A stretch of 10,697 nt of DNA, from the NCBI GenBank assembly GCA_003561595.1, contig PWWF01000359.1:1-10697 (forward strand). The letters run 5' to 3'. Source of the stretch: Paracoccaceae bacterium. GTDB lineage: Bacteria > Pseudomonadota > Alphaproteobacteria > Rhodobacterales > Rhodobacteraceae. This document shows positions 2,284-6,053 of this stretch, piece after piece (positions within the stretch are counted from its first letter, which is position 1; each line of letters opens with the position of its first letter). The translations under genes were made by a program, and so were the position numbers. Below the pieces are notes generated by a model, which saw only the letters and a list, made by a program, of their open reading frames with translations, was not told where the DNA came from and did no database searches.

Positions 2284-3267
2284 ATGCATATTCTGATAAC
2301 AGGTGCGGCAGGGATGATCGGGCGCAAGCTGACGGCAAGGCTGGTCGCCGAGGGCACGCTTGGCGGGCGCGAGATCACGGCGCTGACGCTTGCGGATGTT
2401 GCCGCGCCGCCCGCGCCCAAGGGCTTTGCGGGCCATGTGGACTGCCGCGCCGCCGATCTGGAACAGCCCGATCAGCCTGCGCGCCTGATCGATACGCGCC
2501 CCGATGTGATCTTTCATCTGGCCGCCATCGTGTCGGCCGAGGCCGAGATTGCATTCGACAAGGGCTACCGTATCAATCTGGACGCCACCCGCGCCCTGTT
2601 CGATGCGATCCGCGCCGCCCATCTGGCCGAGGGGTATTGCCCGCGCATGGTCATGGCGTCCTCCATCGCCGTGGTCGGCGCACCCTTGCCGCACCCCATC
2701 CCCGATGAGTTCCACCTGACCCCGCTGACCAGTTACGGCACGCAGAAAGCGATCTGCGAATTGCTACTGTCGGATTACACGCGGCACGGGGTCATGGACG
2801 GGATCGGCATTCGCCTGCCCACCATCTGCATCCGCCCCGGCGCGCCGAACAAGGCCGCGTCGGGCTTCTTCTCCTCCATCCTGCGCGAGCCGCTGATCGG
2901 ACAGGAGGCCGTGCTGCCCGTGCCCGACACGATCCGGCATTGGCATGCCTCACCCCGCTCTGCCGTGGGGTTCCTGCTGCATGGCGCGACGATGGACCTG
3001 ACCGCGCTGGGGTCCCGGCGCAACCTGTCCATGCCGGGGCTGAGCGCGACAGTGGCCGAACAGATCGAGGCGCTGCGCCGCGTGGCGGGCGCGGGGGCCG
3101 TCGCCCTGATCCGGCGCGACCCCGACCCGTTCATCACACGCATGTGCGAAAGCTGGGCGACGGGGTTCGAGGCGACGCGCGCCCGCGCCCTGGGCTTTAC
3201 CGCCGAGGACAGTTTTGATGAGATCATCCGCATCCATATCGAGGATGAACTGGGGGGCAGGGCATGA
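2284..3267 (+). CDS. denD: DenD-type NAD-dependent D-erythronate dehydrogenase (extended SDR)
   Basis: This 327-residue extended short-chain dehydrogenase/epimerase resembles DenD, which oxidises D-erythronate to 2-oxo-D-tetronate with NAD. The Rossmann glycine motif TGAAGMIG lies at residues 6-13. Residues around FHLAAIVS (78-84) follow strand beta-4. The catalytic set is visible as S126/S127 (MASSIAVVG) and Y151-x-x-x-K155 (SYGTQK). Residues IRLPTICIRPGAPNKAASGF are typical of the DenD subgroup rather than of sugar-nucleotide epimerases. The ATG at 2284 follows a purine-rich GGGGGGCAGG stretch. Its stop overlaps the next gene's start (ATGA), implying a two-gene operon under the divergent promoter. 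In described D-erythronate clusters DenD works with OtnK, OtnC and OtnI; none is visible here, so the substrate could differ. A general NAD-dependent epimerase is the fallback call. Confidence 0.82.
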   Translation: MHILITGAAGMIGRKLTARLVAEGTLGGREITALTLADVAAPPAPKGFAGHVDCRAADLEQPDQPARLIDTRPDVIFHLAAIVSAEAEIAFDKGYRINLDATRALFDAIRAAHLAEGYCPRMVMASSIAVVGAPLPHPIPDEFHLTPLTSYGTQKAICELLLSDYTRHGVMDGIGIRLPTICIRPGAPNKAASGFFSSILREPLIGQEAVLPVPDTIRHWHASPRSAVGFLLHGATMDLTALGSRRNLSMPGLSATVAEQIEALRRVAGAGAVALIRRDPDPFITRMCESWATGFEATRARALGFTAEDSFDEIIRIHIEDELGGRA

Positions 3268-4151
3268 AAATCGCGTTTTTGGGCACAGGGTTGATGGGCG
3301 CGCCGATGGTGCGGCGCTTGCTGGGCGCAGGGTTTGACCTGCAGGTCTGGAACCGCGACGCGGCCAAGGCCCGCGCGCTGGCGGGTGACGGGGCAAAGGT
3401 GGCGGACACGCCTGCGGTTGCCGTGGCCGGGGCGGATGTGGTCTTTACCATGCTGTCGGATGGTGATGCCGTTGGGGATGTGCTGTTCGCGCGGGGCGCA
3501 GCCGATCACATCAGGGCCGGGGCCGTGGTGATCGACACATCCTCCATCGCGCCCGATCAGGCACGCGCGCATGCGCAGGACCTGGCGCGGCGCGGCGTGG
3601 GCCATCTGGATTGCCCGGTCTCGGGCGGGGTGGCGGGGGCCGAGGAGGGAGCCCTCGCGCTGATGGCCGGGGGCGACGGTGAGGTGATCGCCGCGCTGGG
3701 GCCAGTGCTGGCGCCTCTGGGGCGGGTGACGCATGTGGGGCCCAGCGGGGCGGGGCAGGTCTGCAAGCTGGCCAATCAGCAGATCGTCGCCATCACCATC
3801 GCCGCGCTGGCCGAGGCCATGGTGCTGGTCGAAGCCGGGGGCGCCGACCGCGCGCGCTTTCGCGACGCGATACGCGGCGGGTTTGCAGAAAGCCGCATTC
3901 TGGATCTGCATGGCGCGCGGATGATCGCGCGCGATTTCGCGCCCGGCGGCCCGTCGCGTCTGCAACTGAAAGATCTGAACGCGGTCGCAGCCCTTGCAGG
4001 CACCCATGGCCTGAGCCTGCCGCAGACCGAGGCCGCGCAACAGGCCTTCGCGGATTTCGTGGCCTCTGGCGGGGCAGAGGCCGACCATAGCGGCTTGCTG
4101 CTGCATCTGGAGGCGATGAATCCGCGGCAGCGGGCACCAGGGCAAGACTGA
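3264..4151 (+). CDS. beta-hydroxyacid dehydrogenase (GarR/LtnD/HIBADH family)
   Basis: This 295-residue protein is a NAD(P)-dependent dehydrogenase of the 3-hydroxyisobutyrate, tartronate-semialdehyde reductase and L-threonate dehydrogenase family. Dinucleotide binding is shown by GTGLMG at 7-12, and NR at 30-31 after the second strand suggests a preference for NADP(H). Substrate binding appears as DCPVSGG (116-122). The catalytic lysine is K168 in GQVCKLANQ, with N171. The helical C-terminal domain carries LQLKDLNAV and ends in DHSGLLLHLE. KLANQ is characteristic of GarR/GlxR-like 2-hydroxy-3-oxopropionate reductases, whereas many HIBADHs have KxxNN. LtnD is therefore possible but not certain. 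It overlaps the DenD-type gene by 4 bp, so the two enzymes probably act on the same substrate flow, perhaps as consecutive or alternative oxidations of a sugar acid. Length is normal and no key residue is missing. Confidence 0.9.
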   Translation: MKIAFLGTGLMGAPMVRRLLGAGFDLQVWNRDAAKARALAGDGAKVADTPAVAVAGADVVFTMLSDGDAVGDVLFARGAADHIRAGAVVIDTSSIAPDQARAHAQDLARRGVGHLDCPVSGGVAGAEEGALALMAGGDGEVIAALGPVLAPLGRVTHVGPSGAGQVCKLANQQIVAITIAALAEAMVLVEAGGADRARFRDAIRGGFAESRILDLHGARMIARDFAPGGPSRLQLKDLNAVAALAGTHGLSLPQTEAAQQAFADFVASGGAEADHSGLLLHLEAMNPRQRAPGQD

Positions 4152-4210
4152 CAGCGCGCGTTCCGGTTTTCGACAGCGTCGGTCGGGCGCGTGTGGGTCT
4201 GTGCAAGAGC

Positions 4211-4263
4211 AAAGCGCCTCAGGGCGTGCCCCACCCACCCACCCGCACGCCCTGAGGCGCTTT
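4211..4263. terminator. shared bidirectional hairpin between convergent genes
   Basis: A perfect 19-bp inverted repeat (4211-4229 pairs with 4245-4263) encloses a 15-nt loop. It lies 59 bp after the dehydrogenase stop at 4151 and 29 bp beyond the sulP stop at 4293, so it can end transcription from both sides. The stem has AAA at its left foot and TTT at its right foot, giving a short U run in both transcripts (...GGCGCUUU), but no longer U tract follows on either strand. The stem alone is very stable. The loop is exceptional and is listed separately. Confidence 0.85.
4230..4244 (-). other. G-quadruplex-forming loop of the terminator hairpin
   Basis: The 15-nt loop reads CCCACCCACCCACCC on the plus strand and GGGTGGGTGGGTGGG on the minus strand. 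It has four G-triplets joined by single T linkers, the tightest and most stable class of parallel G-quadruplex. The sulP transcript would carry GGGU repeats in the loop; the plus strand could form a C-rich i-motif. The sequence is seen directly; folding is predicted from known G-quadruplex behaviour. Confidence 0.8.
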
Positions 4264-4292
4264 GGCCCATCAGAAAGCACACCATGGCTGTA

Positions 4293-6053
4293 TCAGGCAG
4301 GCGCGCGATTCGTATCAACACGGGGTTGTGCCACACAGTCCTGCGTCACGGTCGGGGACAGGTCCGCCATCGCATCGAACTGGGTCAGAAACACCTTGCC
4401 CGTCAGCTCATCCAGAAAATGACTGCGCGCAAGCTGATCCATCACCGGGCCCTTGACCTCGGACAGGTGAAACAACACGCCTGCGGCCTTCAGCCGGTCA
4501 TTGATCGCCTCAAGGCTCTCCAGCGCAGAGGCGTCGATGTAATTGATCGCGGTCGCCTGCAGCACGACATGTTTCAGTGCGGGCTCTGTCGCAAGGGCCT
4601 GGACGATCTTGTCCTCCAGCACGCGGGCATTCGGGAAATAGAGCGACTCGTCCACGCGGATCGCGAAGATCGCCGGGTCGGTCGTGACATGATGCCGCTC
4701 GACATTGCGGAAATGCTCGGTCCCCGGCACCTGTCCGACCACAGCGATATGCGGGCGCGATGTGCGATAGAGATACAGCACCAGCGACAGCCCGACACCC
4801 GCCAGCAGGCCCTGTTCCACGCCGATCAGCAGCGTCACAGCCATGGTCGCGGCCATCGCGGCCCCGTCGGCGCGCGAATAGGCGAAGGTGCGGGGCAGGG
4901 CGCGGAAATCCAGCAGCGACACCACGGCCACGATGATGATGGCCGCCAGCGTTGCGCGCGGAAGGTAGAACATCAGCGGTGTCAGCACCAGAACCGCGAC
5001 CCCGATGAACAGTGCCGTGATCGCGCCTGCCGCCGGGGTGCGCGCGCCTGCGTCGAAATTCACGATGGTCCGCGACAACCCGCCCGTGACCGGCATCGCA
5101 TTGCTGACACCGGCCCCCAGATTGGCAAGCCCCAATGCGACCAGTTCGCGGTTGGGGTCAATCGCCTCGCGCTTTTTTGCCGCCAGTGTCTGCGCGATGG
5201 AGATGGATTCGACATAGCCCACGATCGCGATCATAAGCGCGGGCGCGGCAAGAATCTGGATCAGCGTCAGGTCAAGTTCGGGCAGGCCGAATTCGGGCAA
5301 TCCGCGCGGGATATCGCCCAGAATCGCCACGCCGCGCCCGTCCAGCCCCAGCGCCCAGACCAGAAATGTGGAGGAAACGACCGCGATCAGAAGCGCGGTC
5401 CGGCCCAGAAGCTTCGCAACCGCTTCGGACAGCCCCATACGCATCAGAACCCGCGCCAGCCCTGCGCGCGACCAGAACAGAAAACCCAGCACCGCGGCGG
5501 ACAGCAGTGCCGTGGGCAGTGAGACATTGCCCAGATTGCCCAGCAGCGAGGGGATCACCTGCGGCAGCGTCTTGCCTGTGATATCCGCTCCAAGAAGATG
5601 GCGTAACTGACTGGCCGCGATCAGTATTCCTGCTGCGGTGATAAAGCCGGAAATCACCGGATGCGACAGAAAGCTCGCGATGAATCCCAGCCGGAACACG
5701 CCCATCAACAACAGCATCGCCCCGGACAGAAGTGCCAGCCAGAGCGCCGCCAGATGATAGCCCGGTGCACCCATCTCGGCCACCAGACCGGCAGCCGCCG
5801 CCGTCATCAGCGCCACCACCGCCACCGGACCCACGGCCAGCGACCGCGACGAACCGAACGCCGCGTATAGAAGCAGCGGCAGCATCGCGCCGTATAACCC
5901 CGCCTGCGGGGGCAGGCCCGCCAGCATCGCATAGGCCATGCCTTGCGGCACCAGCATGATCGTCACGACACTTGCCGCGATCAGATCCTGCGCAAGAAAG
6001 GACCGTTCATATTGGCGTGCCCAGGCAAGGAAGGGCAGAAAACGGGTAAGCAT
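4293..6053 (-). CDS. SulP/SLC26 family anion transporter with STAS domain
   Basis: This 586-residue inner-membrane protein is a SulP-family transporter for sulfate, bicarbonate or another small anion. The membrane domain starts within about 25 residues of the N-terminus and carries the family signature VPQGMAYAMLAGLPPQAGLYGA, then GSSRSLAVGPVA, HPVISGFITAAG and PVTGGLSRTIVNFDAGARTP. The number and hydrophobicity of the segments fit the usual 14-helix fold. The last 115 residues or so form a cytoplasmic STAS domain, with FAIRVDESLYFPNA and NYIDASALESL. The start at 6053 (MLTRFLPFLAW) was chosen because AGAAGG lies at 6064-6069, 10 nt upstream, and because homologues begin with a similar tyrosine/arginine-rich lead-in. 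An upstream in-frame ATG at 6077 is possible. There is no adjacent carbonic anhydrase or sulfur gene, so the transported ion cannot be specified. It appears to be a single-gene transcript. Confidence 0.93.
   Translation of the reverse strand: MLTRFLPFLAWARQYERSFLAQDLIAASVVTIMLVPQGMAYAMLAGLPPQAGLYGAMLPLLLYAAFGSSRSLAVGPVAVVALMTAAAAGLVAEMGAPGYHLAALWLALLSGAMLLLMGVFRLGFIASFLSHPVISGFITAAGILIAASQLRHLLGADITGKTLPQVIPSLLGNLGNVSLPTALLSAAVLGFLFWSRAGLARVLMRMGLSEAVAKLLGRTALLIAVVSSTFLVWALGLDGRGVAILGDIPRGLPEFGLPELDLTLIQILAAPALMIAIVGYVESISIAQTLAAKKREAIDPNRELVALGLANLGAGVSNAMPVTGGLSRTIVNFDAGARTPAAGAITALFIGVAVLVLTPLMFYLPRATLAAIIIVAVVSLLDFRALPRTFAYSRADGAAMAATMAVTLLIGVEQGLLAGVGLSLVLYLYRTSRPHIAVVGQVPGTEHFRNVERHHVTTDPAIFAIRVDESLYFPNARVLEDKIVQALATEPALKHVVLQATAINYIDASALESLEAINDRLKAAGVLFHLSEVKGPVMDQLARSHFLDELTGKVFLTQFDAMADLSPTVTQDCVAQPRVDTNRAPA

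What the first reader, a model, noticed from the sequence alone, without database searches (positions are those of the whole stretch)
4211..4263. Terminator hairpin whose loop is a perfect (GGGT)n G-quadruplex
A perfect 19-bp stem presents a 15-nt loop made only of four G-triplets with single-T linkers (minus strand). A chance loop of this purity is very unlikely even in GC-rich DNA. On the sulP transcript the loop could fold into an RNA quadruplex capped on a stable helix; in the other direction the template strand carries the G4. Since U tracts are short on both sides, the quadruplex might supply the pause or termination strength, protect the sulP mRNA 3' end, or be a protein-binding or mobile repeat signature. 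The sequence and pairing are seen; the role is inference.
Basis: partly seen in the sequence, partly recalled or inferred. Interest (0 to 1): 0.7.

Follow-up and report, generated by a model that had tools for sequence, protein, structure and literature searches.

The report
Gene-end hairpins capped by G-quadruplex loops
The hairpin between two facing genes, with a loop of exactly four GGG runs, belongs to a group of similar hairpins that sit just after genes in this bacterium and its relatives and keep the ability to form a four-stranded knot while their stems change, which points to an overlooked kind of gene-end signal whose action is still untested.

Summary
In detail: a perfect 20-bp hairpin (4210-4264; reader: 19 bp) with a 15-nt loop that is GGGTGGGTGGGTGGG on the minus strand, between the convergent ends of a 3-hydroxyisobutyrate-dehydrogenase-like gene and sulP. 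It is not a one-off. GGGNGGGNGGGNGGG occurs at 72 places in this 3.3-Mb genome; at least 48 of 70 distinct contexts are hairpin loops, typically just after a stop codon, almost never between divergent genes. In 1.05 Mb sampled from three relatives, 31 of the 40 strongest hairpins have this loop. Stems differ and covary; between orthologous sites linkers change while the four GGG runs persist. The window's copy belongs to a dispersed subfamily (AAAGCGCC...GGCGCTTT). Best reading: a gene-end, terminator-like element that needs a quadruplex-competent loop. The sulP-RNA-quadruplex idea fits this site's orientation, but in tandem sites the neighbouring mRNA mostly carries the C-rich strand (66:15), so a DNA quadruplex on the template strand is the better common agent. 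In three other genera neighbouring sites always share a strand; in two others they do not. This copy is not conserved in the closest relative. Folding and function are inferred, not shown.

The parts
4210..4229 (-). one arm of the 20-bp stem (3' arm on the minus strand)
   Evidence: the repeat finder I1, 100% complementary
4230..4244 (-). loop GGGTGGGTGGGTGGG: four GGG runs with single-T linkers; C-rich on +
   Evidence: quadruplex-aware fold
4245..4264 (-). other arm of the stem (5' arm on the minus strand)
4206..4267 (-). extent matched by covariance model R1 of the dispersed AAAGCGCC...GGCGCTTT subfamily (this copy is one of the 18 the model was built from)
   Evidence: independently BLAST of the window finds 7 copies in G006 at 87-92% over about 55 nt
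3264..4151 (+). convergent gene, 3-hydroxyisobutyrate-dehydrogenase-like (PF03446 + PF14833); its mRNA would carry the C-rich loop
4293..6077 (-). convergent gene sulP (PF00916 + STAS PF01740; start uncertain, 6077 or 6110); its mRNA would carry the G-rich loop

Best explanation
It is a gene-end element: a long GC-rich hairpin right after a stop codon, often between two convergent stops, whose loop is kept able to form a three-tetrad quadruplex with short linkers. I think it ends or insulates transcription. RNA polymerase makes a very stable hairpin that pauses it, and the quadruplex supplies what a U tract supplies in an ordinary terminator. Where the mRNA is C-rich (the common case in tandem sites), the quadruplex forms on the DNA template strand and blocks polymerase. 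Where the mRNA is G-rich (sulP here), the RNA itself folds into a quadruplex on the helix and locks or protects the 3' end. Shown: place, pairing, recurrence, covariation, persistence of four G runs, strand bias. Inferred: quadruplex folding, blocking, termination.
For: 48 of 70 G000 contexts have stem score >=8 around the motif, against 0.32% of 5000 random positions. Convergent sites 25 of 59 versus 15% of intergenic bases, divergent 1 of 59 versus 36%; G100 12 of 26 and 0 of 26. 31 of 40 hairpins with score >=16 in 1.05 Mb of three relatives have this loop. Of 21 sites matched to G024, 18 keep the exact motif (two as poly-G), 1 has it inverted, 2 lack it (the window's own and a coding one); linkers changed at 13 of 48 positions without the poly-G pairs. 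Paired stem changes at L009, L020, L027, L056. Subfamily of 18: 31 double-change cells versus 11.8 shuffled, 0 of 500 shuffles as high. Loops that are not exact mostly keep four runs: 17 of 18 G008 copies examined, and one G010 copy with a 5-nt linker.
Against: No expression, 3'-end or folding data. Sites outside the AGCGCC subfamily lack U tails: >=4 T in the first 8 nt in 0 of 63 (G-sense) and 8 of 63 (C-sense), background 4.8%; in the subfamily 14 of 32 (G000) and 10 of 12 (G008) G-sense, but only 2 of 26 in G006. U tails on the G-sense side sit oddly with a C-sense role. The window's own copy is not conserved in G024. In some same-genus genomes the hairpin is beside the motif, not around it. 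One G008 copy has a broken G run (L509). 9 of the 40 strongest hairpins have other loops.
Confidence: 0.5

Rival explanations
1. A REP-like extragenic repeat: the hairpin is copied about the genome, lands harmlessly after genes, and the quadruplex loop is part of what the copying enzyme recognises. Any effect on transcripts is secondary.
For: The window's copy belongs to a dispersed subfamily: 7 copies in G006 at 87-92%; model R1 hits 136 in G006, 54 in G008, 36 in G000. Copy numbers differ strongly between same-genus genomes. Avoidance of divergent regions fits REPs too. Uniform strand in three genera would fit insertion into one replication strand.
Against: Sites outside the subfamily share only apex and loop, with stems unlike each other. 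Outer arms differ between subfamily copies and yet pair (mean run 3.25 versus 0.98 shuffled), which simple copying does not give. Elements are mostly kept at orthologous sites in G024. No transposase link was searched for.
Confidence: 0.2
2. Mutational by-product: a quadruplex-prone tract stalls replication, the stalled strand copies the opposite arm, and palindromes around such tracts become perfect and long; intergenic sites survive because they do little harm.
For: Paired changes and an inverted loop with its apex at one orthologous site (L020); paired variable outer arms; 9 of 72 places within 75 nt of a contig end versus 1.4 expected, and poly-G in place of loops in G024, suggest that the structure troubles polymerases.
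Against: It does not explain placement just after stop codons and avoidance of divergent gaps, nor why four runs persist while linkers change.
Confidence: 0.15
3. RNA-level C-tract: the useful form is CCCNCCCNCCCNCCC in the mRNA, a Rho or other protein loading site, with the hairpin as pause or 3'-end protector.
For: C-sense bias 66:15 in tandem sites; in G005 and G033 several motifs have, in mRNA sense, an ordinary hairpin just downstream.
Against: Strict four-run spacing and loss-free linker change point to quadruplex rather than C-richness; the window's nearest gene, sulP, is G-sense; 15 nt is short for a Rho loading site (recalled).
Confidence: 0.1
4. Chance: GC-rich terminators whose loops happen to be G-rich.
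For: Genomes are GC-rich and gene ends carry hairpins.
Against: 23 of 28 other strong hairpins in G023 have loops of 3-7 nt; among the 22 non-motif hairpins printed none has a near-miss G-run loop; orthologous persistence.
Confidence: 0.05

Closest known systems
Intrinsic (Rho-independent) terminators, including bidirectional ones between convergent genes
   Same: GC-rich hairpin just after the stop codon, enriched between convergent genes; A and T runs at the foot of the stem in the AGCGCC subfamily, with a U tail on one side in many copies
   Different: 15-nt four-GGG-run loop instead of a short loop; stem often 20-30 bp; no U tract outside the subfamily; a preferred orientation of the loop
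GGGNATC-type quadruplex repeats of Xanthomonas and Nostoc (Rehm 2015, PMC4692102; abstract, sections 13 and 16 read)
   Same: Dispersed intergenic quadruplex motifs, preference for four units, near stop codons, rare between divergent genes
   Different: Heptamer tandem repeats, described as repeats rather than hairpin loops (stem-loops only mentioned as a competing fold of inverted ones); near stop codons they lie mostly on the coding strand, here the non-coding strand dominates in tandem sites
Archaeal recurrent quadruplex motifs with a C-rich flank (PMC8044849; passages read)
   Same: Recurrent intergenic quadruplex motif near gene ends or starts with a hairpin-forming neighbour
   Different: There the G runs themselves pair with the C track, so hairpin and quadruplex compete; here the stem flanks the G runs and both can coexist
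REP/BIME palindromes and the E. coli quadruplex-hairpin-duplex switch of Kaplan 2016 (title seen in reference lists only; paper not held)
   Same: Dispersed extragenic palindromes after genes; a quadruplex-hairpin connection in the title
   Different: I could not read it and cannot say how far it overlaps; REP foot motifs and transposase were not tested here
KOPS and other strand-polar octamers (recalled)
   Same: G-rich motif with strand polarity along the chromosome, in G100, G245 and G257
   Different: Opposite strand in G100 if positive GC skew marks the leading strand; hairpin context; not polar in G068

Membership tests
intrinsic terminator | stable GC-rich hairpin | tested here: met
   20 bp perfect, z = -5.3 and -3.8
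intrinsic terminator | U tract directly after the stem | tested here: not met
   tails GCTCTTGC and GCCCATCA at the window; subfamily copies in G000 and G008 often have one on the G-sense side, other sites do not
intrinsic terminator | transcripts end there | not testable with these tools
   no transcript data
G-quadruplex motif (four G3 runs, short linkers) | sequence | tested here: met
   GGGTGGGTGGGTGGG at 4230-4244 minus
G-quadruplex motif (four G3 runs, short linkers) | K+-dependent fold | not testable with these tools
   only an energy model
REP-like repeat | dispersed, extragenic, palindromic | tested here: met
   for the AGCGCC subfamily
REP-like repeat | conserved foot motif and RAYT/Y1 transposase | not tested
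   no transposase search was made
Xanthomonas/Nostoc GGGNATC repeats | heptamer tandem unit | tested here: not met
   unit here is GGGN, 4 nt (definition)
described RNA family (Rfam 15) | match at the gathering score | tested here: not met
   window: none; 8 element loci at E <= 1: one tRNA only; 7 more loci: two tRNAs only
FtsK-orienting octamer (KOPS-like) | G-rich on the leading strand, polar in all lineages | tested here: not met
   G strand opposite positive GC skew in 16 of 16 site-bearing G100 regions; unpolar in G068; leading strand assigned by skew only; definition recalled

The most novel reading that the evidence does not exclude
A new class of gene-end signal without U tract: a hairpin whose quadruplex loop, placed on the template strand of the gene that ends there (and in some genera always on one replication strand), acts as a polar roadblock that ends transcription and separates convergent genes. 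The quadruplex also drives perfection of the palindrome, so stems turn over by coordinated changes while the loop stays fixed.
Probability: 0.28. Interest if true: 0.87.

Novelty: new variant of a known kind. Interest (0 to 1): 0.72.

Why it matters
Whether quadruplexes have selected roles in bacteria is usually argued from abundance. Here is a natural series in which stems vary and covary, linkers vary in base and length, and four GGG runs persist at gene ends. That separates 'quadruplex-competent' from 'GC-rich' and can be tested site by site. Two genome-wide inverted-repeat surveys allowed spacers of at most 8 nt (PMC13155455, passage) or 10 nt (PMC10434271, passage), so a 15-nt loop lay outside their reach; the terminator scan used here misses it too. 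The strand biases bear on how cells tolerate quadruplexes: in E. coli a (G3T)8 tract was 270-354 times more mutable when the G-rich strand was non-template, with a small effect of replication direction (PMC7023247, section 3.2 read).

Tried and rejected
Rfam: no family for the element. rRNA or tRNA operon ends as the home of near-identical G100 copies: rejected, no RNA genes in the loci searched; they lie in a repeat of about 430 bp, next to TRAP-transporter-like and amidohydrolase-like ORFs (names by eye, not tested). GC skew in the window's own genus is too weak to assign strands. dnaA as the switch point: in G100 it lies inside a contig with one strand, so the origin was not located. The reversed-pattern control is itself self-complementary (CG...CG) and is not used as a null; for GGGNGGGNGGGNGGG the reversed pattern is the same pattern. 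Plasmid collection: no match. Viral contigs: one match, at the start of a 6.3-kb contig, not pursued. A first filter for the subfamily was too strict and was redone. Papers: ten library searches; Kaplan 2016 not held.

Caveats on counts. Survey regions and G024 regions were partly chosen because they hold sites; L028, L043, L044 and L067 were incidental, and all four keep the motif. One search scores only exact matches, so it cannot count G-run changes among them; its Fisher value is not used. Strand counts include sites of any stem score; one search is filtered at stem score 5; G000 and G024 share orthologous sites, so their counts are not independent. R1 models the G runs too, so R1-selected loops lean towards them, and it scored at most 144 candidates per genome. 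Gene calls come from a simple ORF caller of my own. Two of the 72 places repeat the context of another contig end, so the 9 contig-end places are about 7 distinct sites.

Full report
What is there. The window carries a perfect 20-bp inverted repeat (4210-4229 / 4245-4264) around a 15-nt loop that reads GGGTGGGTGGGTGGG on the minus strand. It lies between the facing ends of a 3-hydroxyisobutyrate-dehydrogenase-like gene (+, 3264-4151) and a SulP permease gene (-, ending at 4293). The 15-mer is absent from 200 shuffles. A quadruplex-aware fold puts a quadruplex on top of the helix on the G strand only.

It is one of many. G000 (3.31 Mb, 440 contigs) has 72 GGGNGGGNGGGNGGG places, 70 with distinct contexts. 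Of these 70, 48 have a stem score of at least 8 around the motif and 35 at least 10, against 0.32% and 0.1% of 5000 random positions in the same loci. Lower-scoring ones include a repeat type, AAGCGCCCGCGAGCGGGGCAT-G4-GCCCCGAGCGGGCGCTTTT, whose stem holds facing GA mismatches, a few with the hairpin beside the motif, and at least one inside a called ORF (L010). In 344 kb of relative G023, 7 of 9 hairpins with score at least 16 have this loop and none of the 26 weaker ones. Over G023, G024 and G100 together (1.05 Mb) it is 31 of 40; in G100 8 of 19 weaker hairpins have it too. Some of these regions were chosen because they hold sites, so the share is not unbiased. In the wider family the GC-flanked form was found in 37 of 296 genomes, and 26 of 37 same-genus genomes.

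Where it sits. With a simple ORF caller and the G strand taken as plus, the 70 G000 sites are 26 C-sense tandem, 7 G-sense tandem, 25 convergent, 1 divergent, 3 inside a called ORF and 8 at contig edges. Against intergenic bases in G023, convergent sites are enriched (25 of 59 versus 15%) and divergent depleted (1 of 59 versus 36%). G100 gives 12 convergent, 12 C-sense tandem, 2 G-sense tandem and 0 divergent of 26. Over eight sets (G000, G100, G068, G319, G320, G245, G257 and 23 sites of other same-genus genomes; 161 sites) tandem sites are 66 C-sense to 15 G-sense, with 3 divergent. Three further sets (G006, G008, G024) give 20 to 5, with 4 divergent. In G000 the median distance from the C-sense stop to the loop is about 38 nt for both main types.

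Persistence of loop and pairing. 21 of 70 G000 sites could be matched by both flanks to the parts of G024 that I held (flank identity 88-95%): 18 keep the exact motif (two of them, L019 and L053, as poly-G runs), 1 has it inverted together with its apex (L020), and 2 lack it, the window's own site and L010, which is inside a called ORF. Without the poly-G pairs, linkers changed at 13 of 48 positions. Stems at L009, L020, L027 and L056 show paired changes. The window's subfamily (18 copies from G000, G006, G023) has 90.0% paired cells versus 82.4% shuffled, 10 of 23 pairs with changes on both sides, and 31 double-change cells versus 11.8 +/- 2.4. Beyond the shared core, outer arms differ between copies but still pair (16 copies, mean run 3.25 versus 0.98 with shuffled partners, largest of 5000 shuffles 2.44). 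Model R1 matches in 32 of 37 same-genus genomes, 136 places in G006, 54 in G008 and 36 in G000. Of 18 G008 copies examined, 14 have the exact loop, 3 have a 2-nt linker with four runs kept, and 1 (L509) has a broken run; a G010 copy has a 5-nt linker with four runs.

This locus. The closest relative, G024 (its contig C221 has the length, 40,298, of REDZ01000091.1, GEM2.Bin58), has 91-93% identity on both sides but about 560 other bases with a short EF-hand-like ORF (by eye) and a different hairpin. Of 33 sulP relatives examined (of 80 fetched) for up to 420 nt downstream, fewer where contigs end, 2 have a quadruplex-loop hairpin, L077 and L083, on stems unlike the window's. So this copy is young or labile.

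Strand polarity. Neighbouring sites on the same contig share a strand in 41 of 41 pairs in G100, 13 of 13 in G245, 10 of 10 in G257, 5 of 5 in G022, 8 of 10 in G023, 7 of 8 in G033, 5 of 6 in G005, 1 of 2 in G002, 18 of 27 in G319 and 31 of 66 in G068 (poly-G left out, some lists capped). In G100, 16 of 18 sampled regions hold 19 sites, all on the strand opposite positive GC skew. If positive skew marks the leading strand (recalled rule), the G runs are on the leading-strand template. This holds in some genera only.

How it may work. Place and pairing say gene-end hairpin. Outside the AGCGCC subfamily a U tail (at least 4 T in 8 nt) follows 0 of 63 hairpins in G sense and 8 of 63 in C sense, near background; inside it, 14 of 32 in G000 and 10 of 12 in G008 in G sense, but 2 of 26 in G006. 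So some copies look like ordinary terminators for the G-sense direction, while most others lack that part. Together with the persistent G runs this suggests that the quadruplex does work that a U tract normally does. The C-sense bias speaks against an RNA quadruplex in the mRNA as the common agent and for a DNA quadruplex on the template strand, or for avoidance of the other orientation: in E. coli (G3T)8 was 270-354 times more mutable with G on the non-template strand (PMC7023247), and a G-rich mRNA strand raises deletion of (G3T)n (PMC7603069 abstract). The inversion at L020, the paired outer arms, and contig ends and poly-G at such places suggest that the structure also troubles polymerases and may help perfect its own palindrome.

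Comparison with what is known. Ten library searches listed no paper that, by its title or abstract start, describes four-run quadruplex loops in gene-end hairpins of bacteria; apart from the passages and sections named here I did not read those papers, and subscription papers are mostly not held. The closest are the Xanthomonas/Nostoc repeats (PMC4692102) and archaeal recurrent motifs (PMC8044849), both different in anatomy; Kaplan 2016, on a quadruplex-hairpin-duplex switch in E. coli, could not be read.

Verdict. Observation confirmed; interpretation partly right. A recurrent, covarying, quadruplex-loop gene-end element of Rhodobacteraceae, with its mechanism still to be tested.

Noticed in passing
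L070, about 4815-5379, and the same place in G024:C221 (L275): Where the window has its hairpin, the closest relative has a short EF-hand-like ORF with a signal-like start and other hairpins; one of the two genomes gained or lost it (named by eye).
   Followed up: no
G024, G023, G031, G015 and G001 contigs (for example G023:C5:3-40, G031:C3:1-47): Long poly-G runs at contig ends, and poly-G in place of loops at two orthologous sites (L019, L053); probably a sequencing artefact at structured sites.
   Followed up: partly
L052:1493, L159:1500, L169:1500: A different motif, CCCTGCGGGAGGGYGGGCGGGGCGACG...GGCGCAGCCRCGCGAGCGCCG, similar in three same-genus loci; its G runs can pair with a downstream CGYCCGCCC, so quadruplex and hairpin would compete there.
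   Followed up: no
L047, L340, L342, L344 and similar loci in G000, G005, G033: A third layout: an ordinary small hairpin beside the quadruplex motif on the G strand, thus downstream of the C tract in the mRNA of a C-sense gene.
   Followed up: partly
L365, L386, L409 (G100): A repeat of about 430 bp (94-95% identical) that contains the quadruplex hairpin, and a separate AAGAAAGAG...CTCTTTCTT hairpin nearby.
   Followed up: partly
L523:2-28 (IMGVR_UViG_3300000365_000123): One viral-collection contig begins with a copy of the subfamily apex and loop.
   Followed up: no
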